Shown: piece after piece, positions 40,128-63,577 of the stretch
Layout of the letters: each line of letters begins with the position of its first letter
Position numbering within the stretch: position 1 is the stretch's first letter
Origin: Undaria pinnatifida
Taxonomy: Eukaryota > Sar > Phaeophyceae > Laminariales > Alariaceae
Length of the DNA stretch: 64,000 nucleotides
Reading direction: 5' to 3'
Assembly (NCBI GenBank): GCA_012845835.1
Contig: JABAKD010000021.1
Coordinates: 9,280,006-9,344,005 of the forward strand
Translations under genes and position numbers: made by a program
The notes under the pieces: generated by a model
Database searches by the model: none
The model's input: only the letters and a program-made list of their open reading frames with translations
What the model was told of the DNA's origin: nothing

Positions 40128-40536
40128 TGTAATGGAGTGCCCTCCGTAGAAGGATAGCTTTATAGATTCGACGTGAAGCCATGTCATGGTTGAGGTGAAA
40201 CCACGTGACTTTAGATGCCACATTCACGTCAAGGCCATCATAGATGAGCGATAATGTAGGTGACGATGATGGGACAAGCAGGACGCCCCACATCCCACTA
40301 CCTGCTCTACCTGCTCTACCAGCTGCACCTGCTATACTTGCTCTGCCCTGCACTACCGTGTGTCAAGGGCCTGTGATGTCTGTCTTTTAGAGTCCAATGA
40401 AGAGGAAGTAATGTATAAGCTTTTGAGTCTATCCAACGAGCCATGAGGAGAGACCAAACAAGGGCACCGGAACCCATGAGGAGCACGCTTCCCAACACCG
40501 ACCAACCACGCATCCCCCACTCGGAGTACCACCACA
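40128..40536 (+). repeat. 3' LTR of the 14.7-kb element
   Basis: 409 bp, same ends and length as the 5' LTR, followed directly by the AAAC target duplication and the resumed satellite sequence. Confidence 0.9.
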
Positions 40537-40540
40537 AAAC

Positions 40541-42970
40541 CCACTGGTGGACGGCGAACGATCCTCTCGCAAAACACCTTAAACAGCATCTACACGAACT
40601 GCCCGGACCCCGAAATCAAGACACATAGGCACGACGAACCATCATACCCTCACTACCCAACCCTATTCCTCAACGTATCCCCTCGGACCATTCATACCTC
40701 ATGGGTGTGGCGCCAACAAAATGACAGTTACGGCTCGTGGATATCAAGGTATCCAAAATCTTATACTGAATCAAAATTCATAGACGGTAAGAAAATATTG
40801 CATTTAGATTCTTTACATACAACAAGTGAAAAATCTCATCTCCTCACCAGCCAGACCCAAATCTCACTGGTAGACAGCCAACGATCCTCTCCCAAAACAC
40901 CTAAACAGCAGTGGCACGAACTGCCCGGACCCCAAAATCACGACACATAGGCACGACGAACCATCATACACTCACTACCCAACCCCAGTCCTCAACATAT
41001 TATCACCTCTGACAAATTCTACCCTATGGGTGTAGTTCCGACAAAGTGACAGTTACGGCTCGTGGATATTAAGGTATCCAAAATCTAATACTATACCCAA
41101 TATCATAGACGGTAAGAAAATACCGCATTATAGATTCAATACATACAACAAGTGAAAAATCTCATCTCCTCACCAGCCAGACCTAAATCTCACTGGTAGA
41201 TAGCCAACGATCCTCTCCCAAATCTCCTCAAACAGCAGCGACACGAACTTCCCGGACCCAAAAGTCACGACACATAGGCACGACGAACCATCATACACTC
41301 ACTACGCAACCCTATTGCCCAACATATCACCTCGGACCATTCATACCCAATAGGTGTGGTTCTAGCAAAGTGACAGTTACAGCTCGTGAATATCAAGGTA
41401 TCCCAAATCTGAAACCGAATCCAATATCATAGACGGTAAGGAAAAACCGCATTATGCATTTCATACTTACAACAAGTGAACACTCTCGTTTCCTCACCAG
41501 CCAGAGCTAAAACCCACTGGTGGACGGCCAACGATCCTCTCGCAAAACACCTCGAACAGCATCTACACGTACTGCCCCGACCCCAATATCACGACACATA
41601 GGCACGACGAACCAGCTAACATTCACAACCCAACCCTTTTCCTCAATATATCACCACGGACCTTTCATACCCAATGGGTGTGGTTCTAACAAAATGATAG
41701 TTACGGCTCGTGAATATCAAGGTATCCCAAATCTGAAACCGTATCAAATATCAAAGACGGTAAGGAAAAAACGCATTTTACATTTCATACGTACAACAAA
41801 GTGGAAAATCTTATCTCCTCACCAGCCAGACCTAAGGCCCACTGGTATATATACAACGATCCTCTCGCCAAACACCTCAAACAGCAGCTTCAAGAACTGC
41901 CGCGACCCAAACTCACGACACATAGGAACGACGAACAATCATACACTCACTACTCAACCCTATTCCTAAACATATCACCTCGGACCATTCATACCCAATG
42001 GGTGTAGTTCCAACAAAGTGACAGTTACGGCTCGTGGATATTAAGGTATCCAAAATCTGAATACGAATCCAAGATCAAAGACTGTGAGAACATGCCGCAT
42101 TTTACAATCTATACTCACAACGAGTGAAAAATAACATCTCACCAGCCAGACCTAAAACCCACTGGTAGACGGCGAACGATCCTATCGCAAAACACCTCAA
42201 ACAGCATCTACACGAACTGCCCGGACCCCGAAATCACAACACATAGGCACGACAAACCATCATACACTCACTACGAAAAACCAACATACACCCAATACTA
42301 CCCAATCCTATTCCACATCATATCACCTCGAACCATTCATAATCAACAGGTGTGGTTCCAAGAAAGTGACAGTTACGGCTGGTGTATATCAAGGTATCCA
42401 AAAATGTTCACTGAATATATTATCATAGACAGTAAGAAAATTCCGCATTTTACACTCCATACTTGCAACATATGAAGAACATCACTTCCTCGCCACCTAG
42501 CCCTGAAACCCACTCGTAGACGGGTAGCGATGATTTTCCAAAACACCCCGAACAGCAGCCATACGAACTGCCCCGACCCCCAAAACCACGACACACAAGC
42601 ACGACGAATCAACATACACCCACTACTACCCAATGCCTTTCTACAAAATGTCACCTCGGACTACTCATACCCAATAGGTGTTGTTTCAACAAAGTGACAG
42701 TTGCGGCTTGTGAATATCAAGGTATCCAAAAATGAACTAGATACAATGTCATGGACGGGAACAAAATACCTCATTATACATTCCATACTCACAACAAGTA
42801 AAAAATCTCGTATCCTCACCGGCCAGACCTAAACCCACTGGTAGACAGCAGACGATCTTCTCCCAAAACACCTCAAACAGCAGCCGCACGAACTACTCCG
42901 ACCCCAATACCACGACACATAGGCACGACGAACCATCATACACTCAATAATACCCCACCCTATTCCTACA
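40541..42970 (+). repeat. Satellite array of about 324 bp, right part
   Basis: GACAGTTACGGCTCG or a close relative recurs at 40723, 41048, 41372, 41696, 42020, 42368 and 42696, giving spacings of 325, 324, 324, 324, 348 and 328 bp. Each unit also holds a TATCAAGGTATCC block, an ACAACAAGTGAAAAATCTC block, CAGCCAGACCTAAA, and ATAGGCACGACGAACCATCATACACTCA-like sequence. Identity between units falls toward the right end. Open frames that cross unit borders (for example 41520-41969) are incidental. Confidence 0.9.
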
Positions 42971-43679
42971 AATCAGGGGAAAAACTTGACCACAACGAAA
43001 CTGATATAAAGGGCTAAACCCATCGGAATCAACCCAAAACTAAACATACTGTAGAAGGCTTGTTTCCAGCGGGGTGGCTGACATGCTGACAACACACCAC
43101 CATCCAATAAAAAACACTCATTCAAATTCTCCAATATTATATATCCTATATCGCTCGTACATACATGAATCATGAATATTGTCTCCGTAAAAATACAAAA
43201 CTATACGGCTCATCGGGCAGGCTGCAAGTACTAGATCTTATTTCCCTCTTGCTCGCATGTCTGCCTTGATAGCAGTGTCTCGACATCTGATGCATTTACC
43301 CCGGAAATGAAACATGGTCCAATTATTCTTATTAGCACATATTTGACATCCCTCGGACATAGACCAGTCACAAATCCAAAACCCGAACAAAAAAACCGTC
43401 AGAAATTCGATCCAAAATCCCCCCAACTCTATATTTTACCTACTACCCAATCTGATCATCAGTCCAAGCGCAAAGATTTTAAATCGACGTCTCTGCTGAA
43501 CGAGACACGATGCCTTGCGACCTGTACCAACAGAGTTGACAGGAAAAAAATAATCATCCCTGATATGATCACGCCATTCTACATTCCTGCGAACTCAAAA
43601 GCACTATCCTCAAATTCAAACAAAGTATCATATTTATAAGAGGTTTGCCTTTAACTACATAATATAAAAAAGCTATGAT
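42971..43679. other. A/T-rich interval without a clear gene
   Basis: A minus frame at 43238-43426 contains CQIC and CIRC pairs 17 residues apart, like a small zinc ribbon. It is short, has no supporting context, and is left unnamed. Confidence 0.35.
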
Positions 43680-47106: not shown

Positions 47107-47869
47107 TATTGATCCTTACGTGGCATGTGGCGTGTGCCAGCTCTTAGCTGGTGTACGCTTGTAGGCCCGTGTTTCGATTACGTGATGAACACACAGCCTA
47201 AAGGCTATATATATTATTTGAGGCAAAGGAGGGCCACGGTTAGGTGAGCCTGTGAGAGCAGAGACCTCTAGCAGAGAAGGTGTTGTTCGGCGACACCAGG
47301 CCGTCATGTTGGCGAATGATTTGTTTGCTCAGCAGATGAGAGCTGATGGTGAGCAAAGGGGAGTGATCGAAGTGGGCCTGATCATTACCTGATCGAGACG
47401 GTACAATTCCTTAATCTACGGACAGATGTACTCCACGGGTAGTTGTCTGATCTACCTACAGCAACGTTTCCTGAGGCTTGCTTGTGGTCTACCGTATCTA
47501 TGGCAATGTTCCCTGAGGTTCGCCTCTGAGAGCTTGGCTACGGCAATGTCCCTGCGTTTAACCTAAAATCATATCCCATGAACGTTGCTAACTTTACGTT
47601 ATTGCGCCGCATTAAATTTCGTACCAACATTACTCGTACATACTACATGTACCAGCTTTTGGATATGACTAATCAGCAAGCGGCTGTGAATCATGTATCG
47701 AAAATATTGCTGCTGAGACTTGTGCTTGCTACGTACTGCATCGATAAACGACAACTAACAGACTTATTATAACTGTCCGTTGTACGAACAACTCGCAATG
47801 TATGCCAGATGACTTTAAAGTGTTATCAAGTAACGTCTTGATGGTTACTGAGAAGTAGCATATCTAATA
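47107..47869 (-). repeat. 3' LTR of the copia element
   Basis: 763 bp, roughly 83-85% identical by eye to the 5' LTR. TATA-like TATATATAG lies near 47205-47214 in the minus sense. A plus-strand frame of about 64 codons (47578-47772) is shared with the other LTR; it is conserved only because the LTRs were identical at insertion. Confidence 0.88.
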
Positions 47870-47879
47870 CCTCCTCCCG
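47870..47879 (-). promoter_or_regulatory. Polypurine tract of the copia element
   Basis: Minus-strand CGGGAGGAGG abuts the 3' LTR start TATTAGA. This is where second-strand synthesis is primed in LTR retrotransposons. Confidence 0.7.
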
Positions 47880-48713: not shown

Positions 48714-49786
48714 TTAGAGGCTTAATTTAACCTTGAAGTTGGAGAGATAGGTAGATCTATTTCTCTCAAAACGTATTGCTGTCATCGGCTCTGCCTCGAC
48801 TGTTAAATTTGCAGCCAGTCTCTGCGTCTTCGCCTCGATTCGTTTGCGCTCGTCGTTCAGGGTAGAGAGGAAGCTTGAGGTTAGCTTGCACGTGTAAACG
48901 AAGACCGGAGATGTCGCCAGTGGCTCTTGATCGTCCTGTGTTGATTCAGCAGATCCTGTCTCAGGGCGTACCCGTGACTGTCCTTTTGCTGTTTTGAGCG
49001 TGTGGACCTCCTCCTTACGATCTGTTTCGTTGTTGAGCTTTTCTCCAGGGGTTGGCTAAAAAGTAGCTGGTGTGATCTCGGGTGTAGCGGACATTGTCGA
49101 TCAGTCGACCATTGGCTCATCTGATGGTCCGGTGGTCCCAGATAGCGATGATCCAGCGATTCCAATGGTCCCATGTGATGGTGTTGGTCCGGGTGATGCT
49201 CTAGTGATTTAAGATGAAGTTGATCCAGTGATCCCGGATGCAGTTGCTCCGACGTGCGATAATGATGCAAATGGCGTTGCTCCGAAGATCCCATGCGAAG
49301 AAGCCTTGGAGATCCCAGCTCCGGTAATTCCGGTTCCAGTGATTCCAGGCGATGCTGATCCGCAAAGTTGATGGCACCTTAGTAAGTCGTTGGGGATTTA
49401 TCCACCCGGTTTTTCTCCTCCGAAATCCGGAACGGGTCTCTCTCGGTGCAGGTGAAATTTACGCACGTGATCGGTAGGGTTGTCCCCGATGATCCTGTTG
49501 CGTGCGTGTTATCGAAAACGTCGTCGACGCCTGGAGTAGGCCTTGTACTGGCGGTCTAGTAATGAGGGACATCCGGTGCGGCCCCAGTTGTAGAAGAATG
49601 TGCGTGCCAGGGCATAATAGCAGGTGTAATTTCTGTCAAGGACACTCCAACTTTTTGCGGTAGTGCTCCAGCCCTTGATAATGGTTCCGCAATCTCTGGT
49701 GATGATGACGTTTCGTCCGTTGTCGGTAATACTTCCTCTTTCAGAAGGTTGTTGTCGTAGTAGTGTAGCATGATCTGGACTAGCAC
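48714..49786 (-). pseudogene. Ser/Thr-rich region in place of integrase-RT
   Basis: Downstream of the protease, where copia elements carry integrase, RT and RNase H, there are only low-complexity, Ser/Thr/Gly-rich stretches in two frames with about five stops. One part reads GITGTGITGAGISKASSHGI-like repeats (DNA near 49090-49350). The end reads TAKGQSRVRPETG and then a charged segment with LNDERKRIEAKTQRLAANLT, ending at a TAA (48714-48716). No catalytic motif is visible. It may be the linker between former domains after a deletion, or a replacement open frame. Confidence 0.45.
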
Positions 49787-50586
49787 ATAGTAGCGTTCCG
49801 TCTCAGTGACAATGGCTTTTCATGCGTGATGTCCGGGATTCGCGCATGTTGGCGCTCAGTCTCCGTGACAGTAGCCTCTTCAGGCGTGTTGTTGCCGCCT
49901 GATGGTGTGCACTCCTTGTGGGTCGCATGATTCTGTCCATCCCGCACGGATAACATCTTTCGTTGGGGCGTTACCGTCGTGGTGTTCTCCATGTCTATGC
50001 TGGAGTTGGTGGAGAAATCTTGGATCTGTTTTATGTTGGAACCGCCTCGAATGGCGTCGTTGATGGCTTGTGCTGCAGGTACTACAGCAGACGTTGATGA
50101 CGTACCAGCCGTGTCGCCCAGAGTGCAAAGAAATACGTCGAAAGAGCATATGCCCTTGTACAATGAGTGTTGGGCAAGCGGAAGCGAAGTGCTGCTGTCG
50201 AACTGCAAGTGGGGGTTTCCCGTCACGAGGATAGTGCTTCCCCCTGATTGTATTGCTTGGATGGAGGAGAGGACGTTTCGTCCCAGTGCAAGTACGACCA
50301 TGGCCGAGGTACGAACAGAAACACGCTTGCCAGACCGGTCGATGATGTATCCCAAGATGGTGCCTGTTGCGGTTGCCAATACCTTCTTCTCGTTGGTCAT
50401 GATGATCTTCGGCTCCTTTAGCCTCTTGTAATCCTTCATGCGTTTCCGCAGTCTTGGAATCAGCTCCTCGTCTATCAGGTGGTCCGACGCACCGCTGTCC
50501 ACAAGCATCGTGAACCTGTCGTTGTTGGGGTAAAAACCCCTGTTGACGCCACCATTGGGTTGAAAACCCCTGGAGTGAAAACCCAT
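49780..50586 (-). pseudogene. Copia-type aspartic protease and adjoining region
   Basis: 268 codons. Near the N-terminus FTMLVDSGASDHLIDEELIP carries the DSG active-site triad of copia retropepsins, followed by VLATATGTILGYI and ALGRNVLSSIQAIQSGG, which fit the flap and C-terminal parts of that protease. The stretch after residue 115 (NPHLQFDSSTSLPLAQHSLY) resembles the gag-pre-integrase region, but no HHCC or DDE integrase follows. This piece has no internal stop although its gag neighbour is broken. Confidence 0.75.
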
Positions 50587-50789
50587 GTTGCTGCTACCAG
50601 CTAGCAGCTCTGTAATCCCTCTTCGAAACCATCGTCAACGTTGAGGGACGGCATTTCGTCGTCGGTGGTGCGTGTGCTCGCGTCTTGTACGGAATGGGCA
50701 GTGTGAGTGTTTCCACTCTGTGGTGGGCGTGGCGCTCCTTGCTTGTAGCAATCGTGTCGTCGTGCGAGGGAGTTTTGTGTACAGAACAC

Positions 50790-51690
50790 CACTTGTGCTC
50801 AGCTCAAATGTTGGATGCTGCCTTGATATTTGAAGATTCTTTGCTTTTCTGCTTGTAGTGGGCGCCAGTAGAATTGCTGTCGTTGTCGTCCTTCCTTTTC
50901 CAGCAGTTGTGGGCGTAGTGCATTTGTTTTCCGCGATGACTCCAAGTCGATGCCGCAGTCATGGCTACGCCACGATCAACGATTTTGGTGTCGCCGTTGC
51001 GGCAAAGATTATCGAAATAAAGATGGCGCATCGCGCTTTGCATCTAATTGATGTCGAAAGTCGGGTCTCGGTATATCATCATCTTGATGTGCTTGTACTC
51101 CGCCGTGAATCCTTGTACACAGATGTCCTAGAATCTTCGGTCGGAAATTATCTCGCCCTTATTTTCTAGCTCAGAGCGCGCGAGCGTCTTTTCCATAAAG
51201 GGGGAGTCCGGATCTTCTCCTTGCTACATGTTGATGTTGACGAGTTTTTATTTTGTCGCCCGGATCACTTCGTCAGTGACCTTGTTATACTTCGAGACAA
51301 GCTCTTGTAGGGCCTTTTGTCGGTCACCGGTCGTCCCAGTCTAATCCTCGTGCTTGAGTACAAGTAAAGATGCTGGTTTCTCCGTTAGTAGATAAAGCAT
51401 GTCGTACAGATCTTGACTTGCCTTTTCATAAGCTGCGACTTCTAGTGCACGTGGTGGTGAAGATCCCGTACCGACCGTCGCTTCGGTCGGCCGAGGATGC
51501 CGTTTAATGAGGCTAGCGATATCGCGTTTGGATACTCCAATTACAACCGCTAATCGTTTACCCCGATCTCGAAAATCAGCTTGGCTGCGCCCATCGAATG
51601 TTCTTAGTCCCATAATGGCGTTGGCGTATGAAGTGCTGTTGCTGCTGGATTCCCCTATGGTGATGATGAGTACGTGCCAGGGAGCAGTTT
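50790..51690 (-). pseudogene. Copia-type gag with in-frame stops
   Basis: One minus-strand frame reads a gag polyprotein from about 51680 to 50790. It passes through FDGRSQADFRDRGKRLAVVI (51341-51613 segment), then an alpha-helical stretch with NEKVTDEV-like and DICVQGFTAEYKHIKMMIYR segments. It ends in HLYFDNLCRNGDTKIV and a zinc-knuckle relative, SHRGKQMHYAHNCWKRK. The knuckle has lost its first two cysteines (expected C-x2-C). About five in-frame stops interrupt it, most TAG and several where CAG (Gln) would be expected. Confidence 0.75.
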
Positions 51691-51890: not shown

Positions 51891-52331
51891 TGTAATGAAC
51901 GGATAAAGGGCTATTATAGATACACGTACCCAAGGCTCGAATCCCTTGTCCTAACTCTCTCACCGCTTTTAGTTATTTTCCTCAGTGTCTACATTCAGGC
52001 TGATTTCTCCCGTCTGCTTGTTGCAACAGCTGCCTGCAAATACCAGTCTCGTCTCAAGCAGTCCTCTTCCAAGCGCTCGTACAATATAACAGATCTCTGG
52101 ATGAAACCTCCAACAATGCCTCACGGTAACGATCGCTGTACTGAAGCTCGGTTCGCAGTCACTCACGCTCGTGTCAGACCAAGTTCAGGTTTCTTTTTCC
52201 CTCGTTTGGTTCTGTGTGTTTTTGGACTGAGGCCGTGAGCGGCACGCTTTCTATACTGATCGGCGTCATACAGACTTAGGCAGCATTCCGCCACGGGGTT
52301 TCATGTGACGTCATGTCAATCCGCTGCGACA
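51891..52331 (-). repeat. 3' LTR of the gypsy element
   Basis: 441 bp, about 94-95% identical by eye to the 5' LTR. A perfect TGACGTCA palindrome lies at 52306-52313 in the U3 side. Confidence 0.9.
52306..52313. promoter_or_regulatory. TGACGTCA (CRE/bZIP-type) site in 3' LTR U3
   Basis: The palindrome TGACGTCA, flanked by CATG on both sides, is conserved in both LTRs (see 61863-61870). TGACGTCA is the consensus site of CREB/ATF-class bZIP factors. In the 5' LTR it sits near the U3 start, upstream of a TATAAC stretch, so it may act as an enhancer. Function is inferred only. Confidence 0.4.
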
Positions 52332-52341
52332 CCCCCCCAGC
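52332..52341 (-). promoter_or_regulatory. Polypurine tract of the gypsy element
   Basis: Minus-strand GCTGGGGGGG directly before the TGTCGCAG start of the 3' LTR. Confidence 0.7.
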
Positions 52342-52734
52342 ACGGCTTTCCAGGAATACCGTGCTAACCGGACTGCGGATACACTTGAGTGAGAGTGAGG
52401 GCCTTTTCCCACACTTAGTCGTGTTTCGACTACCCCAAGGCTCGAATGAGTGGCGTCCAACATTTTCATGGATAGGCGTCTCTCAGGCGGTAAGGACCCT
52501 GGGTCTCTCGCTTTTTCGCATTAGGTCCCAGATCGGTACTGCTGGACTTGCTAGAATTTCTCGTCAAGTGCACCAGCTGAAAGCCTCTTATCCGCCACTC
52601 CCGGCTTTTCCTATTAACCCGGGTAGGCCGAGGCCTTGATCCTCCTCGCTGGTCGATCTTCGACCAACGTCATCTCCCTTTCTCCATCGGACTCTACTTC
52701 ACGTCCTTGTTTACGGGCAACCGCATTGCGAATT

Positions 52735-52885
52735 TGCGGTCCTCCCATCTTTCAGGATTTCATGTTCGTTGAGCTCCTCGCAATCTCCGTCTGGGTACCG
52801 AACCCGCCAGTACGGTGACTTGTAGTCGAAGACCTTCGAAAGGTGACGCTTCTTGTTTCCTTCAGCGTCCGCGAATTCCCTCTAG
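52735..52885 (-). pseudogene. Tudor-like 'DGD..EEL' module at the pol C-terminus
   Basis: After a TAG that ends the upstream frame, the minus strand reads a short module with F-A-D-A-E-G, then YWRVRYPDGDCEELNEHEIL. The pattern V/F-x-D-x-x-G ... W-x-V-x-Y-x-DGD-x-EEL-x-x-x-E is typical of small beta-barrel modules of the Tudor/chromo-like type found at the C-terminus of some algal and oomycete gypsy integrases. By analogy with chromodomains of chromoviruses it may read chromatin and direct insertion; this is inference. Confidence 0.55.
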
Positions 52886-53094
52886 ATCAAGGTCCCCACG
52901 GGGTGTTGTTTCAACGCTTGTTCGCGGTCGATCTCATCTCTTTCATTCCGCGTTAGCGTCGAAGTTGGTCTTGCCCGGCACTCGGCTCCGTGATACGTTT
53001 CCCACAGCGCATGGGAAACGTCCAGCTGTATAGGGGTGAAACTGTCTCGTGCCTTCTCTTCGGACAGCCACTGCGACTCTGTGCCATCCACGAA

Positions 53095-54860
53095 TCATCC
53101 CTTGTATCGCCACTTCCAAGCGTTGCCTTGACCCACCACAGCCTTTCTGTCTATTAGGGTATACATAGGCGACGCTACAATCGACGGCTCCGCCAGTCCG
53201 ATGTCAACTCCCCATGGCAGGTGAGTAAATTCGTTTTGCAAGTCGTGACGGAGGTCGTCCGGACGTATATGGAACATTTTGATAATCGACGCTGACGCCC
53301 GTCGTCGGCGAATCCCTCGTCCATTCATCGTGACGATGTAGCTGAGTCCTGGTAAGACAACTCCAGTCACCTCCCAAGGTCCGGTCCAGTGCTCGTGGGC
53401 TAGTTTATGATGCACCCCTTCCCTTGCCATCACAGACTCCGCCTCCTTTACCAGCACCTTATCTCCGACAACAACACGGGTTCCCCCGAGGTCCGACCGA
53501 TTTCAGCATTCCGACTCTCACAACTTTTCTGCCTGTCTTCATGTCTTTTCGATAGAGCCATCCGTACATTCCGTACCTCCTTGTGCGCTTGACGTTTGTC
53601 GGCCACGGAACTGTGCACCCCGCCTCTTAAATCACCACCATATATCTCGGGGTGCGTAGCATCAAGTTGCGTGCGTGCATCACGACCGAATAAAAGATGG
53701 AAGGGAGTTGGCTCCCACGGTGAGCCCAGGTCCGGCGTGGTACGATGGATCCACATTGCCGGTTGTACTTATTCGTCCCATCTGCGAGGCCAGGTCTTGC
53801 ACAATTCTCCTAGTGCTTCTTGTAGACACCCCCCTAGTCTCTCCAGCGTCCCCTGTGCACGTGGATTAACTGCAGGCCCGTAGGCGATGGTCATGTGCAA
53901 CGATTTACATAAGTGTTGCATCCCCTTTGCCGTAAACTCGGATCCCGGATCACTGCGAACAAACAGCGGTAGCCTATAGTAAGCATCACTTCGAGTAGTT
54001 TTCTCGCTACTCCGAATCCTTCTTTCGCAGGGAGTGGAAAGGCGGACAAGAACTTGCTGGCTTTGTCCACTGCTACAAGTAGAACCTTGTTGCCTGCGTC
54101 TGACGTCACCCCCATGTCCTGGATGTTGACTTCGATTACTTCCCCGGGTCGAAGAAACCTCGACGGTAGCATGGCAACCCGTTGACTCGCTGACCGCTTG
54201 CGACATCTGCACCCACACGAGAGGATGTAGTCTCTAACGTCCTTGGTGAGGGTGGGCCAGCAGTACTGATGACTAATCAAGGCTGTAGTTCTCGCCGTCC
54301 CCAGATGCCCATAGGTGCTGTGCGCCAGCGCCATAATCCCTGGAACGAGAGATCTGGGATCTGCAAGTCGTGGAATCTTTCCCCTAGGTGCTACCCACAT
54401 GAGGCCGTTATCATCCGTCGCGTGTTCGCCTCCTCCTGATCCTCGGTTTCCAGCTTCCTGGAGTTCTTTCCGAATCTTGCCAAGTACCATATCTTCGCAC
54501 TGCCTCTGCACCAGCTGCGACAAATGCTGGAAAATAGCTGTCATCTGTTCCAGCATGGATGGCTCTGACCGCTCGGGTTCCTTGGCATCTTTCCTTGATC
54601 CGCTTGAAAGGCTTCTGGTTCCCTTTGGTAATTCCTCCAATGGCTCACGCTGCCGTTTCGGTCTCGGGATGGTCTCTCTCGGTCCCCTGTCTTTGGGTGG
54701 GCGATCAACGTCCACTAGTAGTTCAGTAGTATTTACCGTCTGCGCTGTTGCATTTTCCATCTCCTTTTTCTCAGGTAACAGCGGTTCTGATTCCCAGACA
54801 ACCTCCGGTTCTTCCGAATTGGCCTTTGCCTGCGATCTCGTGACCGCTCTTGTCACCTGA
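53095..54860 (-). pseudogene. Gypsy integrase with GPY/F-like tail, frameshifted
   Basis: Read 54860 down to 53095 over at least three frames. First a linker rich in charged residues (54856 to about 54430). Then the zinc-binding region with HSTYGHLGTARTTALISHQY and a C-G-C pair (near 54330-54210). Then the catalytic core: first Asp in VIEVNIQDMG, second Asp in VRSDPGSEF and the Glu in QGTLERLG, the last two in a second frame (53769-54218) after a shift near 53.97 kb. A third frame (53448-53756) holds EPTPFHLLFGRDAR. The last (53095-53457) holds HEHWTGPWEVTGVVLPGLSY ... IIKMFHIRP, a GPY/F-like end. The DDE residues are present, but the frame breaks make it non-functional. Confidence 0.82.
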
Positions 54861-54979
54861 TCTCGTGACCGCTCTTGTCACCTCAAAGGCTTTTGCTGCT
54901 GGGAGGTAATCTTCAAACACCATGCCGGCCAATCCTTCCAGTTGCGCGACCTCTGGCACCGGTTTTCCCAGTAAGCCTT

Positions 54980-55865
54980 GAACACCTAGTTCAACTAATA
55001 CTGCTCGTAGCATTGGAGGAGACGTGAAATCTGCGATGGCATTTGCCGCTGCGCTTTTGCTGACCGTCTGCGGGATCACGGTGTGTTCCTGCCCTGTGGT
55101 GATCTTAGCGTAATTGTTGAAGTGCAACTCTTCGGCTTTTTCAAGGCGTGCCGCATTTGCTGGGTGTGCGATATAGCCTTCGGTTGGCATTTCCCCTATG
55201 ATATGAGCACGGTCAAAGAGATAGTGGGTTCGCTGAACAAATAAACCGCTCGCTCTCCGTTACCTTTCTTCAGGAAGTATGCGCCTTTTCGTCCCGGAAA
55301 TTCCCCTAATTTCTGAACTGGTTGCTTTATTTTCTCCAACCTCCACTTCCAAACGGCTAACTTCCTGTTTGTGGCAAGGCCTCGCTGGATTCGTACCACG
55401 ATTGTCCGTTTCGTCCTCCACGGAATCCCTTGGCTGGCTAGTATCGCCGCTTTGTCCACGATGTATGACTCTCGTTCTAAAGCGGGGAGAATCTCGTCGT
55501 TCCATTCCGTCGTTGGCAGAGGGTTGTTCAAACATTTGAGTATGAAAACTCGCGCGTCTGAGGCGACGGCAGATTGGGCTCAGCTACTTGCTCGGGATAT
55601 TCCCTCCTTCTCTCGTATCCCTTCAAACCACCTGCAGGTGTCACTGACCACCATGTCTCGTCTCACCTCTCTCAGCATGGTTAGGCATTCCTGCGACCCT
55701 GTTGTCACACTCAGTAGCTTCGCACCGTTGTCCAGTCCGTTTGCTCTGATGCATTCCAGTGCTCTCCAGTCCTGGTCTACTGCTCCTCTGACCGTCAGCA
55801 ATCCCTCTGACGCAAGGATGCCGCCTCCCCCCCCACAGTCGAGCATGACCACCACTGGAAGTTCC
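54980..55865 (-). pseudogene. C5 cytosine DNA methyltransferase-like domain in pol
   Basis: About 290 codons between RNase H and integrase, with features of C5 DNA methyltransferases in the right order and spacing. Motif I, VVVMLDCGGGGG (Asp codon 55838-55840), binds AdoMet in the family. Motif II-like AVDQDWRALECIRANG follows with the normal gap of about 20 residues. The motif IV region is DMVVSDTCRWF, where the catalytic Pro-Cys loop reads Thr-Cys (Cys codon 55634-55636). The motif VI position (VFILKCLNN) lacks the usual ENV. The motif VIII region, ILASQGIPWRTKRTIVVRI, matches GIPQ-R-R. Then come a motif IX-like arginine/proline segment (HPANAARLEKAEELHF) and a motif X-like end (AAANAIADFTSPPMLRAVLV). 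One in-frame TGA (near 55569) and one frameshift (near 55195) break it. Position suggests it was once part of the pol polyprotein. It may have set cytosine methylation on the element or host; activity in this copy is not expected. A non-DNA methyltransferase fold is the main alternative. Confidence 0.62.
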
Positions 55866-56049
55866 GGTGCGATGACAAGCTGAGCCTGTTGAGTATCTGC
55901 CTCTGATGGGTCTGCGGGTGTGAGTGCGACGGCTGCAAGTACTGTAAGACTTTGAGTACTAGATCCGTCCACATCTTCCACTCCTAAGGTTTCGAGATGT
56001 ACGCTGTCGAGCACTGGCCCCTGTGGCCAATTGTAAGCATTGGGCAACG

Positions 56050-56552
56050 ACTCATCTCCTGGACAAGAGTCGTCGAAATCTTCGATCACGATGCTCTTGT
56101 TCGGTAACCGCGACATGGCGTTTGGGAGCTGATGTTGTGTCCCTGGCTTCCACTTCAAGGTTATGTCGTGCTCCATCAACCTCAGAACCCAGCGGTGGTA
56201 TTTCCGTGTGAGAGGTTGGCTTTTGAAGAGCCAAAGTAACGCCGAACAGTCCGTGATGAGCGTGAGCGGTCGCCCCCAAAGATAGGGTTGGAATTTGCTC
56301 ACTGCCCACATGATCGCCATGCATTCACGATCTGTTGCTGACATTTTGGAGTGTCCTCTCGACCACTTTTTGCTGCCGTACACGATCACCTTTTCCACTC
56401 CTTCGATGCATTGTAAACACCGCTCCTGCCCTTTTTTCACTGGAATCGGTGGACAGCGAGAACGGTTCTGTCCACACCGGCAGGGCTAGGATTGGAGGTG
56501 ACGTCAAAGCCTTGATAAGAGCATTAAAAGCTTGTTCTGCTCTTCTCCCCAA
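56050..56552 (-). pseudogene. Gypsy RNase H
   Basis: Two frames joined by a shift near 56.43 kb. The first Asp is in FSLSTDSS (56325-56552 frame). The Glu is in SATDREC and the next Asp in LITDCSALLWLF (56440 frame). The final family motif, usually D-A-L-S-R, reads NAMSRL, so the last catalytic Asp is Asn. Continues from RT upstream and leads into a linker before the methyltransferase-like domain. Confidence 0.82.
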
Positions 56553-57894
56553 TGGACTTTCTCTTTCTTCGCTCTCTTGTTTCTGAACCTTGGATTCCTC
56601 AGAAAGTCGGAAATGGGCGCCACCACTGTGCTGTACTGGGGTACGAATTGCCGTAAGTACCCTGTCATGCCCAGCAACACTCGCACTTCCTCCATCGTGT
56701 TCGGCCTTGACAGCTGCGTGATAGCATCAATATTGCTCGGGGCCGGCCCGGTACCAAGTCTATCCACGATCATGCCGACGAACTCCATGACCGACTGACA
56801 GAAATGTGATTTCTGATAATTTTCGGTTAAACGTCCTTGCTGTAGACACTCTAACGTTTTTCGCAGCAGTCCCCATCGATCGTCAAGGGTTTCCGACGGG
56901 ATGGCGATGTCGTCCAACCAGCTCTTGATTCCCCTTTTCTTGACGGTTAACAGTCGCCCTCCAATGTAGTTGGCAAACGCCGAATGCACTGTCTTCAACC
57001 CAAAGCCATAGCGAACGTATTCGTACAGCTTTCCGTCAGCGTCTCGAAACGCCGTCAGGTGACGATCGTTCTCATGGATCTCGAGCTGTAAGAATCCTGA
57101 AGCTAAATAGATGCAGGAGAAATACTTTGACCATTCCATGTAATCCATGATGTGACGCAAGTCCCCGAGTCCACCACTCTGTGACTTGAGAAGCGCATTG
57201 ATACATCGGAAATCATGCACAACCCGCACTGTCCTTCTTTCTTGCGAACCGTCGAACATTTTGCGGCCCACTCGGAAGTTGATTCATAAATTGATCCATT
57301 TTTCAAGAGTTTCACCACCTCAGTCTGAATCATCTCGCGCTGTTCCGGGCTGTAGTGTCGAATGGACGCCCCGTATGGCTTGACGCTGGGATCTATGCCC
57401 TCCAGTCGCATGGGCACTCCTTTGCATGCTGGTACGCTCTTGGGGTTGACCGCGGACACGTCGATGTACTCATTGAGAATGATCATCAATGTGTCCATTT
57501 GGCTCGGACTGAGCTGTCCGAAGTTGGCCTCCCCCAGGTCCACCTTGGGGGCTTCGCTCGGAATATTTGCGATTTCACCCCCTTTGTTGCATTGCTCCGG
57601 TGGTCTCCCTTTCTCTTTCTTTTTGATGCCGTCGTCCGGTTTTGAGCTTGTCGGTTCCTCCGACACCGGCTTCATTAGTGACTTCATGCGTTCCCGATCG
57701 TAATTGCTAACAGCGTAAACCGTGGAAATCACCAGCCCCCTCAGGATCTTCACATTATCCTGGGTAACATTCGACAACTTACATTGAAGTGGTATACCCG
57801 GGAACCACCACTGTGCCCCCCTTGGCACTCCTAGATCCAATCCTAGTTTAAGATCATAGCGGTGAGTTGGTTCTAACACTACGAGCTGCTGCAC
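56504..57894 (-). pseudogene. Gypsy reverse transcriptase
   Basis: The N-terminal part (57103-57894 frame) has PVRLEGIDP-like and QREMIQTEVVKLLKNGSIYE segments. A shift near 57.24 kb leads to VRVVHDFRCINALL. Motif A, normally I-D-L-x-x-G-(F/Y), reads CIYLASGFLQLEI, so the catalytic Asp is Tyr (residue 55 of the 56504-57271 frame). Motif B is TVHSAFANYIGG. The active-site box is WLDDIAIPS (residues 118-126) and the thumb continues with GMTGYLRQFVPQYS. The changed motif A and the frameshift make it inactive. Confidence 0.85.
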
Positions 57895-57895
57895 T

Positions 57896-58530
57896 TCAGG
57901 TTGAGGGCCTTTGACAAAAGCGTCTACCTGGATATTGGTACCACCTGGAACCTCTACGTCTTGCGCAATGCATAGTTTTCAGTGCAGAGTGCTTTCGTCC
58001 TCCCAAACAGAGTTTCCTAACTCCATAATTCCCGCCGGGATCATTGGTTCCTCCATTTCTTCCGGTTCTTGCTCGTCCGATGACGGTTTCACCGCGCAAT
58101 ATTGGTCCCATTCGGAAACACATCGCTCCTGCCGCGGCCTCTCCGACCTCCTTCGGGGAGAATGGTACCCACGATGAGGATTGTGTCAGCCGGAAACCCT
58201 CCTCACCATCGAACCTGATGATACTCCGATTGTCTTTCATGAACGCGGCTTCAAGTACCATCGTATACGGAAGTCCTTTCACCACCCTGAACGTCACACG
58301 GAAGATTTGATCGACCGGTGCAAAGACCAGTGGCAGCAAGCACGAGCCTACCACTTCCATCGTGAGTACGGCGCTGGTTTTGGGTTTGCTGCGCTGGGTA
58401 GGCCCTTTCCCGTTGAATTTATCATCGACTTTCCCCAACCATCCCGTTATTCGATGGATTCGATGAACTGCCGTGACACGTATTTTCCTCCACCCGCCAC
58501 AGTATCCACCAGCACCGCAATCGAAAGTCG
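57896..58530 (-). pseudogene. Gypsy aspartic protease
   Basis: Near 58496-58509 the minus strand reads LVDTVAGG followed by YVSRQFIESIE, a retropepsin active-site region with DTG changed to DTV, ending at a TAA. The C-terminal part is in another frame: VTFRVVKGLPYTMVLEAAFM then DNRSIIRF (near 58300-58190), which fits the ILG-x-x-F end of retropepsins. Frame break and active-site change indicate loss of function. Confidence 0.65.
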
Positions 58531-58584
58531 CCGGCTCGAGCTCGTTGCATGCCACAACGTTGCATGAGCCCAAACCTATGACGT

Positions 58585-59345
58585 CTTAGTTTGCAGTGCT
58601 CCCATTCCCGATCGGTGAGAGGAACTCTCTGAACCCTGGCTGCTGTTGACCAGTGAACCCCGACTGCTGATGGCCAGCGAACCCAGGCTGTTGTTTGACC
58701 AGTGAACCCTTGCTGCTGTTGGCCAGTGAATCCTGGCTGCTGTTTGACCGGCGACCTTGGCGCCATCGGAGGTCGCCATCGCGATCTAGGGTTCGGCGGT
58801 GCTCCTCGTGGGGTTGTCTATTGACCCCGTCGTCCTCCGATTTCAAACGGTGACGGTAGGGAAGGAGCAGGCATCTGATTGCACCCGCCTCCCGTTCCTA
58901 CAAGATTTGCCAGTCCTGCTGCCCCTTGTCCTGCACCACCCTGTGGACCCCATCCCACCTGGCCGCCCTGTGGGGGGCCTCTAGCCTGGCCGCTCTGTAA
59001 CGGGCCTCCCTGTGGTGGGCCTCCTCTCGGGTAGGGTGCACCAGAAGGTCCCCAAAAAGGTCCCCCTCTTCCTGCCATGTTATTTCCTCCAATCACTGCT
59101 CCCCCCCTCCCCGGGACGCCGCCCGTTTCTACTTGACGAAACCTCTCGCTTTGCTGTCGTGCAGAGTAAGATGAACTCGACGAAGTTGTGCAGTACACGA
59201 CGGACTCGACGACGCTGTGTTGTATCCGACCAATGGAGCTGTGCAGCAGGAGCTGTGCAGTATGCGACGGACTCGATAAGGCTGCGTGGTACACGATGTA
59301 CTCCACGAAGCTGCGTCGTATAAGGTGAAAATGGTATCCAACCAT
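58585..59345 (-). pseudogene. Gag remnant with Gly-rich and QQPGFTGQ repeats
   Basis: From 59345 a frame reads a Gly/Pro/Gln-rich segment (GGPPQGGPLQSGQARGPPQG, DNA near 58930-59030). It then shifts into repeats of about 8-10 codons of the type QQPGFTGQ (DNA 58625-58755, about five copies split over two frames). No capsid fold or intact zinc knuckle is visible upstream, so most of gag is lost or unrecognisable. Confidence 0.5.
59170..59335. repeat. 29-bp minisatellite in the gypsy gag region
   Basis: About five units of 27-30 bp of the type GACTCGACGAAGCTGTGCAGTA-CAC, diverged, within the 5' part of the gag remnant. Confidence 0.65.
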
Positions 59346-59399
59346 GCATTCTAGGGAGACGAGTGGAGTCCAGGGAATCGATGAAGTCTAGTAGCAACA

Positions 59400-61427
59400 A
59401 GTTGTCCGCACCAAACTGGTATAAACATTGGCTTGGGACAAGGTGGGTGGGAAAAAGGGATCGTGAAATGTTTCGAGTACATGTACATTTATTTACCTTC
59501 CTGGTTTGTTGAAAGTTGTCCCCTTATCATGATATACATGCAACCCTTCGCAAGCAGGAGTCTTTACTAACAGAGTAACGTATGGAACCCCTTAGGTATC
59601 TAAGACACAACAATGATGAATATTCATTAATTCTTCACAAACCTCAAACTCCAACGTATTTATCAAGCTTCCCCCCTATTAATGCATTCTTACAATCCTC
59701 AAGACTCCAACACACATATCGAGCTTCCCCCCTTCCCATTCCAATATGATAATGTCCCTAAACCATGTTTCCATTTCCGGTAAGTTCTTAGCACGACAAA
59801 GAGCAGCCATAGAAAGGCTTAAATACCTCATACACAATTAAAACTAGGATCTAAAGCATGGTTCCAATTCCGGTAGGTTCTTAACATGACAAAGAGCAGC
59901 TATAGAAATACTTACATTCCCCATACAAAATAAAAATCTTGAGCCAGTTTGCAGTATCACTACTCTTGAAACACCTGTGAGAACGATCTTGCAGTGCCTG
60001 TACAATCTGCGAAGACAAAAAATCCTCATCACAAAGGCCAAAACCAAATTTCCTGCAGAAATTAAACCCTTGTCTTGTGGTCGTCTCACAGTATGCAACA
60101 AGTGTAGGTCAACTAACAGACCCGAACTCATTTTCAACCTGTATGATAGACGCAAGCACATTTCTACAGTGATTTATCACGTACGAACTTACTCGTAATC
60201 AGTAATGATGATCCTCCTTTCCCGACGTCCTATTGGTCCCGTATTTCTTAATCTACTTCCTGCATTTTATACAACTTAGTCCGCCCTTGATATATTTTTT
60301 CCAAATAACCCAGCCCATAGATTACGATTTCGCGCAGTATAAAGACCAATATGTGCAATATTCTGTACAAGGTACAACGAACAAAAGTATCCCCAATAAT
60401 AACGTCTACATATACTACTCTATACTCACAACCGCACACTGTTTTGACCATAAAGTCTCTACAGCAGTATTAGGTATATGTATGAGCAAATTATGTAAAC
60501 TATACTTATTACTACATTATTTTACTGGCTCAACAGTCCATGTTACTCCCTTCTAACCATCCTGCCAACATAAATACCCACCCAACTTGCATGTAGGCAA
60601 GGCTTACTAGCAGGTAGGGATGCATGTAAGTCTTTCCCAGTTCAAAATATGAAAAACTTGGTTTACGGATATTGTAAAATTTAAATTACGCTCCAGTTGT
60701 GAGATTGCATGGTACCATCGCTTGCTGTATGTATCCGTTTCGATTGAGTACGTACGGATACCCAAACAAACGGATAATATTTGTTTAGGCAAAATCAGGC
60801 ATACCTAGTCAGTTTGGTGTCAAACTGGTGCAGCACAAGAAAAACAAGAGCGTATCACAAACGACATACAAAACATATGATACGAACGTATACAGCACGA
60901 TGGCGCACTTACCTGGTACAACCATGCAGAAGTACTCGTCGTAAGAGTAAGTACGAGAACGAAAGCAAAAAAATGCATGTCTTGCGGAGCAATTTATACC
61001 ATTAATGCATACCAATGTTTCGTCTGCATCGCATACAAAAAAACAGTGAGTCAAAGCGGGGAGAATCTCGTTTGCCCTTTGTACTGTTGTACGTAGCATG
61101 AACTGCGTGACACCCTCATATTGTATAAACTATCAAGCGTCTCATTCCTCGCCACGACTATCTAGAGATCACGACCACCGATTCTCATCACTCACGCGGC
61201 CTGCTGCACTGCTGCTTCTAATTCTGCGGTGTCTGCCTGTGTTTATCTTGCAGCGTGTTGGGTTCGTGATACTGTTTCAAGCTGCTTCAATCGAGATTGT
61301 CAACATGAGAAAATAGAGTTGAACTGCCATGGAACTTTTTCAACACCTTATAAAATCCATTCATACTTCTACTTGCGCATTTACGACCGTACTTCTACCT
61401 GCGACAAGCGAGACTATCAACCCACAT
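59400..61427 (-). other. Long A/T-rich leader of the gypsy element
   Basis: Two kilobases between the primer-binding site and the gag remnant with only short frames. At 60671-60712 it carries a diverged family-A end (TTACGCTCCAGTTGTGAGAT) and nearby A/T-rich sequence, so a transposon fragment may have inserted here. No matching inverted end was found between 59.4 and 61.4 kb. Confidence 0.45.
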
Positions 61428-61447
61428 GGATCCCAGTTGAAGTCCCA
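61428..61447 (-). promoter_or_regulatory. Primer-binding site of the gypsy element
   Basis: In the minus sense TGGGACTTCAACTGGGATCC starts directly after the 5' LTR end (CGTTACA). It should pair with 20 bases at the 3' end of a host tRNA; the tRNA is not identified here. Confidence 0.75.
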
Positions 61448-61888
61448 TGTAACGAACGGATGAAGAGCTATTTTTGACACACGTACCCAGGTCTCCAATC
61501 CCTTGTCTCAACTCTCTCACCGCTTTTAGTTATTTTTCTCCGGGTCTACCTTCAGGCTGATTCCTCCCGTATGCTTGTTGCAACAGCTGCCTGCAAACAC
61601 CAGTCTCGTCTTAAGCAATTCTCTTCCAAGCGCTCGTACAATATAACAGATCTCCGGATGAAACCTTCAACAATGCCTCACGGTAACGATCGCTGTACTG
61701 AAGCTCGGTTCTCAGTCACTCACGCTCGTGTCAGATCAAGTTCAGGTTTCTTTTTCCCTCGTTTGGTTTTGTGTGTTTTTGGACTGAGGCCGTGAGCGGC
61801 ACGCTTTCTAGACTGATCGGCGTTATACAGACTTATGCAGCATTCCGCCACGGGGTTTCATGTGACGTCATGTCAATCCGTCGCAACA
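61448..61888 (-). repeat. 5' LTR of the gypsy element
   Basis: 441 bp. In the minus sense it starts TGTTGCGACGG and ends CGTTACA. TGACGTCA at 61863-61870 lies near its start, followed by TATAACGCC about 40 bp on, a possible TATA box. Confidence 0.9.
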
Positions 61889-62603: not shown

Positions 62604-63371
62604 TATTGATCCTTAGGCAGCATGTCGCGTGTATCAGCTCTTAGCTGGTGTACGGTCGTAGGCTCGCTTTCGGATGACCCGATGAAGACACAGCCTATAT
62701 ATATGATTTGAGGCAAACGAAGGCCACGGTTAGGTGAGTCTGTAAGAGCAGAGGGTTCTAGTAGAGAATATGTTGTTCGGCGACCCCAGGCGACCCCAGG
62801 CCGATATGTTGATTGATGATATATTTGCTCTGCCGATTAGAGATGATGGTGTGAGCAAAGAGGAGTGATCGAGGTGGGCCTGATCATCACTTGATCGAGA
62901 CGGCGCGATGCCTTAATCTGCGGAAAGATGTACTCTACGGGTAGATGTCTGAACTACCTGCAGAAACGTTTCCTGAGGCTTGCTCGTGGTCTACCGTACC
63001 TATGGCAATGTTCCTCGAGATTTGCCTCTGAAATCTTTGCTACGTCAACGTCCGGCCGGTCAACGGTGAATCATATTCTATGAACGCTGCTAACCATATG
63101 TTCTTGCGCCGCATTTTTTTTCGTACTAACATTACTCGTACGTACTACATGTACCAGCTTTTGGATATGACTAACCAGCAAGCTGCTGTGCATCATGTAT
63201 CCAAGATGTTGCGGCTGAGACTTGTGCTTGCTACGTGCTGCATCGATAACAGACATCTAACAGACTTATTAAAACTGTCTGTTGTACGAACAACTCGCAA
63301 TGGAAACCAGATGAATTTTAAGTGTTATCAAGTAACGACATGAGGGTTACTGACAAGTAGCCTCTCTAATA
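62604..63371 (-). repeat. 5' LTR of the copia element
   Basis: 768 bp, TATTGATCC at the left and CTAATA at the right on the plus strand. It has a small internal duplication (CGACCCCAGG twice near 62780-62805) absent from the other LTR. Followed by the CTATG target duplication. Confidence 0.88.
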
Positions 63372-63577
63372 CTATGAACTTTTTGGCTCTTGGCCTTTCT
63401 TTCAGGCACCACTCGATAGCGTTCCATCCCATCGAAAGCGACGTTCTTGAAGAGGGGATCGTATAGAGGAGATAAATGTGTAACTTCTGATCGGGTGTAA
63501 TGTATATGAAGGCATTAAATCAGGTTAGATACAATCAAGAACGGGTCAAAGCCAAGCATAATCGATATTCACTGGTG

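What the first reader, a model, noticed from the sequence alone, without database searches (positions are those of the whole stretch)
54980..55865. A gypsy retroelement carrying a C5 DNA methyltransferase-like domain between RNase H and integrase
Motif I (LDCGGGGG), the motif II-like segment (VDQDWRALECIRANG), the motif IV loop (SDTCRWF), the motif VIII region (GIPWRTKRTI) and motif IX/X-like ends occur in family order with family spacing over about 290 codons, inside pol. To my knowledge C5 methyltransferases captured by retroelements have been reported only in a few eukaryotes, including some algae. The position inside pol would make the enzyme part of the polyprotein, available at integration. 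Such an element could methylate its own new copy or the host target.
Basis: partly seen in the sequence, partly recalled or inferred. Interest (0 to 1): 0.92.

Follow-up and report, generated by a model that had tools for sequence, protein, structure and literature searches.

The report
Kelp retroelement with worn-down methyltransferase domain
A repeated mobile element in what is very probably the genome of the seaweed Undaria carries, inside its replication polyprotein, a domain descended from DNA cytosine methyltransferases whose active site is partly eroded, which is surprising in a group of algae reported to have lost its DNA methyltransferases.

Summary
Confirmed: an LTR element (51891-61888, minus strand; Ty3/Gypsy-type Pol order) carries a ~300-codon domain related to C5 cytosine methyltransferases between RNase H and integrase. 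The window copy is broken and its pieces hit no methylase profile, but relatives do: PADLOC models to E=1.7e-12 (17 of 27 rows; reversed control none), PF00145 just under cut-off (1.5e-4), hhalign against eight C5 enzymes aligning motifs I to VIII. 150 matches were scored in the host genome, very probably Undaria pinnatifida: one contig length equals that assembly's printed N50. Brown algae are reported to lack DNMT1/3/5. None of 131 relatives has PCQ. Window-type genomic copies keep the Cys (44 of 46), but subfamily C (0 of 9) and the divergent relatives (0 of 38, mostly Ser) do not. Copy-to-copy pN/pS (0.49, young copies) resembles the integrase side (0.48) and the spacer (0.44). I favour a captured C5 methyltransferase domain kept for a mainly non-catalytic role; activity in the Cys-bearing subfamily is not excluded. 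DNMT-bearing Gypsy elements are known (KnitGypsy-Dnmt3), so this is a new variant.

The parts
61448..61888 (-). 5' LTR of the element
   Evidence: Self-BLAST 92.7% to the other LTR; TG..CA ends; PBS-like TGGGACTTCAAC follows directly; flank CTAC/CTAC, or 7 bp within a CTA repeat, reads as a target duplication (my reading); K2P 0.077
51891..52331 (-). 3' LTR, preceded by polypurine-like tract GCTGGGGGGG
56768..57229 (-). Reverse transcriptase region (RVT_1)
   Evidence: Pfam PF00078 E=1.1e-8 in frame 56507-57283
56171..56407 (-). RNase H region (RT_RNaseH)
   Evidence: Pfam PF17917 E=7.1e-21 in frame 55583-56485
55583..55855 (-). C5-methyltransferase-like domain, N part: motif I (LDCGGGGG), acidic motif II (VDQDW), motif IV (SDTCRWF)
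   Evidence: sequence; homologous to the domain scored; motif mapping by hhalign
54965..55579 (-). C5-methyltransferase-like domain, C part: motif VI-like (LKCLNN), VIII (GIPWRTKR), IX/X-like end (SAAANAIADFTSPPMLRAVL); separated from the N part by an in-frame stop at 55580-55582 and itself split by a frame change near 55.2 kb. The low end is approximate.
   Evidence: tblastn of an unbroken relative covers it in two frames (L001 = the window copy)
54212..54358 (-). Integrase zinc-binding domain (Integrase_H2C2)
   Evidence: Pfam PF17921 E=2.2e-13
53769..54180 (-). Integrase core region, frame-broken in this copy (bounds by eye)
   Evidence: Reading of the frame (DPGSEFTAKGMQHL...); no rve hit was obtained in the window; rve E=2.3e-9 after H2C2 in copy L036

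Best explanation
The domain is descended from a C5 cytosine methyltransferase that was captured, probably once, into Pol between RNase H and integrase of a Gypsy-type retroelement lineage, before its present subfamilies split. Shown: the homology, the position, the many copies, and the absence of PCQ in the relatives examined. Inferred: the domain is kept mainly for a non-catalytic job. As part of Pol it would bind nucleic acid, perhaps SAM too, and help the reverse transcriptase/integrase complex with its DNA product or target. The window copy is a dead insertion.
For: PADLOC on P0016: MTase_II PDLC03270 E=1.7e-12 over residues 54-265, PDLC03234 4.8e-7, DruM2 cytosine methylase 1.8e-6; 17 of 27 rows hit PDLC03270 at E<=1. 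Of five divergent relatives scanned singly, four hit it, best P0033 at 3.2e-8, P0057 none; exact reverse of P0016 none. PF00145: P0016 1.5e-4 at 21.8 bits against a cut-off of 22, L036 7.8e-4. hhalign with Dcm and seven phage C5 enzymes: E=1.9e-5, probability 77.6%, DACRR on FPCQA, ECLSNLL on ENVPELL, GIPWRRKRTFV on GLPQRRERVFI. Pol order in a copy with an open Pol frame: RVT_1, RNase H, domain, H2C2, rve. Non-catalytic reading: PCQ in none of 131 relatives; Cys in A 44/46 and B 6/6 genomic copies but C 0/9 and divergent relatives 0/38. Constraint: pN/pS in young copies 0.488 domain, 0.411 RT+RNase H, 0.482 integrase side.
Against: Subfamily A keeps the aligned Cys, the Glu of ENV (43/44) and both Arg of QxRxR in most copies, so loss of activity there is not shown. 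Constraint on the domain is moderate and not clearly its own: the spacer is similar (0.444 young), the old copies give 0.655 for the domain, the highest of the four regions, and between subfamilies the domain (0.47-0.59) is looser than RT (0.29-0.44) and integrase (0.37-0.46), with saturated pS. L061-L063 share a frameshift inside the domain (98.4% identical to each other) and L037 has lost most of the domain in frame within a 1194-aa open frame, so it may be dispensable in cis. PF00145 hits stay under its cut-off, 3 of 27 rows; A4 gave only 30.6% in hhalign. Both AlphaFold models are poor.
Confidence: 0.58

Rival explanations
1. Subfamily A encodes a working, unusual C5 methyltransferase that methylates the element's cDNA or nearby host DNA.
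For: Cys aligned with PCQ kept in 44 of 46 A copies, motif VI Glu in 43 of 44, RxR of motif VIII in most; acidic motif II residue kept in most members compared. SymbioDIRS-Dnmt3 can methylate CG (PMC5890265, abstract and discussion). Low 5mC reported in kelps, highest in repeats and intergenic regions in S. latissima (passages).
Against: Pro and Gln of PCQ, Asn and Val of ENV and Gln of QxRxR are gone; among window-type database proteins only 7 of 11 have the Cys; relatives in the same Pol position lack it. CpG observed/expected is 1.0 in the window and 0.93 in the element; 4 of 21 LTR transitions touch a CpG where about 12% of LTR bases lie in CpG, too few to judge.
Confidence: 0.2
2. The domain is a passenger: captured long ago, no longer useful, and decaying with its copies.
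For: Eroded catalytic motifs; copies sharing a frameshift in the domain (L061-L063) and one copy with most of the domain deleted in frame; pN/pS no lower than in the spacer in young copies, highest of the four regions in old copies, and looser than RT and integrase between subfamilies.
Against: Still recognisable over about 300 codons at roughly 25-47% identity between subfamilies; pN/pS well under 1 in all regions.
Confidence: 0.16
3. The domain methylates something other than DNA cytosine, such as RNA, or uses SAM differently.
For: GxGG loop and acidic residue mostly kept while the nucleophile varies; an RNA role has been proposed for SymbioLINE-Dnmt (PMC5890265 discussion).
Against: No alternative catalytic residue is evident; no direct test.
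Confidence: 0.05
4. Not a methyltransferase relative: a chance resemblance of a low-complexity Gly-rich stretch.
For: Window pieces hit no methylase profile; AlphaFold models poor and the second has no PDB match at E<=0.001.
Confidence: 0.01

Closest known systems
KnitGypsy-Dnmt3 of Klebsormidium nitens (de Mendoza et al. 2018, PMC5890265; abstract and sections 6, 9, 11 read)
   Same: C5-type methyltransferase domain inside the Pol frame of a Gypsy element of an alga, multi-copy, under constraint
   Different: There Dnmt3-related with key residues kept and Ka/Ks below 0.2, in a host with a methylome like that of land plants; here a divergent domain under the Pfam cut-off, PCQ lost, pN/pS about 0.5, host group reported to lack DNMT1/3/5. 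The place within Pol there was not compared.
SymbioDIRS-Dnmt3 and SymbioLINE-Dnmt (same paper)
   Same: DNMT in retrotransposon coding regions, in hundreds of copies
   Different: DIRS and LINE elements, dinoflagellates, key residues conserved, CG methylation shown for SymbioDIRS; the tested SymbioLINE enzyme showed none in yeast
Ectocarpus Gypsy families with NADAR, chromodomain or Tudor domains (PMC12477816, passages read)
   Same: Brown-algal Gypsy Pol with extra non-canonical domains
   Different: Other domains; 'DNMT' has no occurrence in its main text. One methyltransferase passage concerns an N4/N6 type in a Sola1 DNA transposon.
C5 cytosine methyltransferases PF00145 (Dcm and phage enzymes)
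   Same: Motif order I, IV, VI, VIII and similar spacing; profile significance
   Different: PCQ, ENV and QxRxR not kept; fused inside Pol

Membership tests
C5 cytosine-specific DNA methyltransferase (as enzyme) | Significant profile match over the domain | tested here: met
   PADLOC PDLC03270 1.7e-12. Ten of the 15 models that P0016 hits are also hit by all eight known C5 enzymes; PDLC03270 itself was not among the 25 of 66 families shown for them. PF00145 21.8 bits, just under 22.
C5 cytosine-specific DNA methyltransferase (as enzyme) | Motif I GxGG and motif II acidic residue (SAM pocket) | tested here: met
   Aligned; kept in most copies; Asp in 28 of 33 rows with a residue there. The Phe of FxGxGG (recalled motif) is not kept.
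C5 cytosine-specific DNA methyltransferase (as enzyme) | Motif IV PCQ with nucleophilic Cys | tested here: not met
   PCQ in none of 131 proteins. Cys: A 44/46 and B 6/6 genomic copies, C 0/9 (one has a Cys one column earlier), window-type database proteins 7/11, divergent relatives 0/38
C5 cytosine-specific DNA methyltransferase (as enzyme) | Motif VI ENV | tested here: not met
   ECL in A (Glu 43/44), mostly EST in divergent relatives (Glu 36/42), Gln or Arg for Glu in B
C5 cytosine-specific DNA methyltransferase (as enzyme) | Motif VIII QxRxR | tested here: not met
   WRRKR in A (Arg kept in most), mostly STKRK/STKRR in divergent relatives
C5 cytosine-specific DNA methyltransferase (as enzyme) | C5 methyltransferase fold | tested here: inconclusive
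   Model 1 pLDDT 45, best PDB matches DNMT1/2 and M.HaeIII at E 2e-4 to 7e-4 with DOT1L also among 19 matches; model 2 pLDDT 57, no match at E<=0.001
C5 cytosine-specific DNA methyltransferase (as enzyme) | Methyl transfer to C5 of cytosine | not testable with these tools
   needs an assay
Ty3/Gypsy LTR retrotransposon | Two LTRs with PBS and PPT; Pol order RT, RNase H, integrase | tested here: met
   No RT phylogeny was made.
KnitGypsy-Dnmt3-like elements | DNMT with conserved key residues, of Dnmt3 affinity | tested here: not met
   Key residues not conserved; Dnmt3 affinity not tested

The most novel reading that the evidence does not exclude
The Cys-bearing subfamily is an active, non-canonical cytosine methyltransferase and the overlooked source of the low 5mC reported in kelps, whose only recognised DNMT is DNMT2. 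It would have escaped surveys because it scores just under the Pfam cut-off and sits in repeats.
Probability: 0.1. Interest if true: 0.88.

Novelty: new variant of a known kind. Interest (0 to 1): 0.62.

Why it matters
A 2026 survey reports that brown algae lost all DNA methyltransferases except DNMT2 homologues (PMC13076208, passages), yet kelp papers report low cytosine methylation: 1.4% in S. japonica (PMC6916402, passages) and 0.21% in S. latissima, against below 0.035% in Ectocarpus as cited there (PMC9923482, passages). A high-copy retroelement domain derived from C5 methyltransferases in a kelp bears on that: either it is an unrecognised source, or it is a captured methyltransferase kept after its catalytic motifs wore down. 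Both can be tested with one expression assay and long-read data. It also adds to the list of extra domains taken up by brown-algal Gypsy elements.

Tried and rejected
Tried without result: NCBIfam on three window pieces (none); PDB sequence search with one piece (three weak unrelated hits) and with profile A2 (ten hits, M.HhaI at E about 0.9 behind two unrelated chains); the search for related loci in viral contigs (23 pattern stretches, none a relative) and genome contigs (37 stretches, none), each with one peptide pattern, so no bacterial or viral donor was found; two AlphaFold runs, both low confidence. A count of RT copies with and without the domain was not obtained (genome search busy). 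Rejected: chance Gly-rich motif (reversed and shuffled controls); an isolated insertion (150 scored matches, eight in open frames over 1000 aa; some places are pieces of one copy). Not done: phylogeny of the domain against host DNMTs. The young and old copy sets were chosen by me from earlier identities.

Full report
WHAT IS THERE. The finding lies in an LTR element on the minus strand, 51891-61888. Its LTRs are 92.7% identical, begin TG and end CA, with a PBS-like stretch beside the 5' LTR, a polypurine-like tract before the 3' LTR and a short duplicated flank in a CTA repeat. The LTRs differ by 21 transitions and 11 transversions in 441 sites, K2P 0.077. Pfam finds RVT_1, RT_RNaseH and Integrase_H2C2 in its pieces. 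The window copy is therefore a dead insertion, and its own pieces match no methyltransferase profile significantly (MTS at E=0.14 is the nearest).

HOST. The genome (G000) has 511,146,479 bases in 68 contigs. Contig C34 is 16,510,065 bases long, exactly the scaffold N50 printed for the Undaria pinnatifida assembly of Shan et al. 2020, whose scaffolds total 511,280,173 bases at 50.14% GC (PMC7058681, passages). The window is 49.7% GC. I take the host to be this brown alga; the tools name no organism.

COPIES. A search with 106 residues of the N part gave 150 scored matches (of 209 candidates, a lower bound; some places are pieces of one copy), eight of them in open frames over 1000 aa. Of 63 loci taken from the genome, 46, the window copy included, are window-type (subfamily A, over 70% identity), six form subfamily B and nine subfamily C, groups that I set by reading the alignments; the other two (L039, L040) are PF00145 hits elsewhere. 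Protein searches gave 32 relatives at E<=0.01 and then 161 at E<=0.1, 120 listed. A group at roughly 25-42% identity comes mostly from long contigs of unnamed source (call it D); whether that is another species is not shown, and I saw no D-type copy among the divergent own-genome matches read. In D too the domain follows RNase H (P0026) and precedes the integrase zinc finger (P0057), as read, so one capture before the subfamilies split is the simplest account. In copy L036 Pfam gives RVT_1, RNase H, PF00145 (sub-threshold), H2C2 and rve in this order in one open frame.

IS IT A C5 METHYLTRANSFERASE DOMAIN? By descent, yes. PF00145 reaches 21.8 bits against a cut-off of 22 in P0016; 3 of 27 rows match at E<=1 and 4 of 8 proteins, where L003, P0006 and the D members P0026 and P0029 do not. 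PADLOC is more sensitive: P0016 matches 15 models at E<=1, by name all methyltransferases (DrmMII recalled as the DISARM methylase), best PDLC03270 at 1.7e-12 over residues 54-265; 17 of 27 rows match that model at E<=1. Scanned singly, four of five D proteins match it, P0033 at 3.2e-8, as does the C-terminal piece of a B copy (1.2e-3), while P0057, an N-terminal B piece, two window pieces and the exact reverse of P0016 match nothing. Ten of the 15 models are also hit by all eight known C5 enzymes; PDLC03270 was not in the part of that list shown. A profile of those eight enzymes, scored against 131 relatives with their reversed and shuffled forms, has only real sequences in its best 40, best E=2.2e-4. 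hhalign of A2 with the eight enzymes gives E=1.9e-5, probability 77.6%, and lines up motif I, the acidic motif II residue, the Cys of motif IV, the Glu of motif VI and motif VIII; with the gappier A4 it gives 30.6% and only motifs VI-VIII. The motif IX/X-like end is my reading plus the reach of the PDLC03270 match. Structure prediction does not decide: model 1 (pLDDT 45) finds DNMT1, DNMT2 and M.HaeIII among its best 19 matches, at TM-scores under 0.3 and with DOT1L among them; model 2 (pLDDT 57) finds nothing at E<=0.001.

ACTIVE SITE. In subfamily A, motif IV PCQ reads ACR (Cys in 44 of 46), ENV reads ECL (Glu in 43 of 44), QxRxR reads WRRKR; the GxGG loop and the acidic motif II residue (VDQDW) are kept in most copies. 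B keeps the Cys (6 of 6) but has Gln or Arg for the Glu. C has no Cys at the column (0 of 9; one copy has one a column earlier). In the 68-row protein alignment, window-type proteins have the Cys in 7 of 11 rows that reach it (Arg in 3, Trp in 1), and D in 0 of 38 (Ser in 32); Glu of motif VI is kept in 36 of 42 D rows. PCQ occurs in none of the 131 proteins.

SELECTION AND DISPENSABILITY. Pooled pairwise pN/pS: young A copies 0.488 for the domain, 0.411 RT+RNase H, 0.444 spacer, 0.482 integrase side; all A copies 0.533, 0.461, 0.564, 0.570; old copies 0.655, 0.558, 0.534, 0.619. Twelve copies without a stop in the domain give 0.555. Between L036 and copies of B and C the domain gives 0.47-0.59 (7 comparisons), RT+RNase H 0.29-0.44 (6), spacer 0.43-0.56 (6), integrase 0.37-0.46 (5), with saturated pS. 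So the domain is under moderate constraint, near the spacer and, at long range, weaker than RT and integrase. Against necessity in cis: L061-L063 share a frameshift inside the domain and are about 98.4% identical, and L037 has lost most of the domain in frame.

HOW IT MOST LIKELY WORKS. As part of Pol the domain would be delivered with reverse transcriptase and integrase. Since its position and SAM-pocket motifs persist while the catalytic motifs differ between subfamilies and some lack the nucleophile, I favour a role that does not need cytosine methylation: binding the cDNA, RNA or target DNA, perhaps with SAM as ligand. This step is inference. An enzyme in subfamily A remains possible at about 0.2, a decaying passenger at 0.16. 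The window gives no sign of past CpG methylation: CpG observed/expected 1.0, and 0.93 in the element; 4 of 21 LTR transitions touch a CpG where about 12% of LTR bases lie in CpG, too few to judge. This says nothing about CHH sites.

KNOWN OR NEW. Retrotransposon-borne DNMTs were described by de Mendoza et al. 2018 (PMC5890265: abstract and sections 6, 9, 11), including KnitGypsy-Dnmt3 in the Pol frame of a Gypsy element. For brown algae, the Ectocarpus TE paper reports NADAR, chromodomain and Tudor domains in Gypsy; 'DNMT' does not occur in its main text (PMC12477816, passages). None of the listings and passages I saw reports a C5-methyltransferase-like domain in brown-algal retroelements (searches: of which the last four returned no paper; open-licence PMC papers only). 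Brown algae are reported to have only DNMT2 (PMC13076208, passages; S. japonica likewise, PMC6916402, passages), while low 5mC is reported in kelps. Hence: new variant of a known kind, with the eroded active site and the methyltransferase-poor host as the new parts.

Noticed in passing
L039 and L040 (G000:C33:9584045-9584356 minus and 9595022-9595297 plus): The only two PF00145 matches reported in the host genome (36 candidates scored), both over the cut-off, about 11 kb apart, with more canonical C5-methylase pieces (GIGG, NVP, ENM, GNSV). Possibly a viral insertion or split host genes; not determined.
   Followed up: partly
window 49780-51688, minus strand: Frames next to the element read like part of another retroelement: DSGASDHLI (aspartic protease-like, as in Copia Pol) and a gag-like frame. 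By eye only, from recall.
   Followed up: no
window 40535-42975: Tandem array with a repeat step of about 324 bp, copies about 78-80% alike.
   Followed up: no
window 47107-47870 and 62604-63372: Two direct repeat copies, 83% alike, on either side of the LTR element.
   Followed up: no
G000:C18:9010167-9010397 and three other places: Short PsaA/PsaB fragments in large contigs, which look like plastid DNA inserted in the nucleus.
   Followed up: no
L061, L062, L063; L037: Copies with a shared frameshift inside the domain, and one copy with most of the domain lost in frame, suggesting mobilisation in trans or dispensability of the domain.
   Followed up: partly
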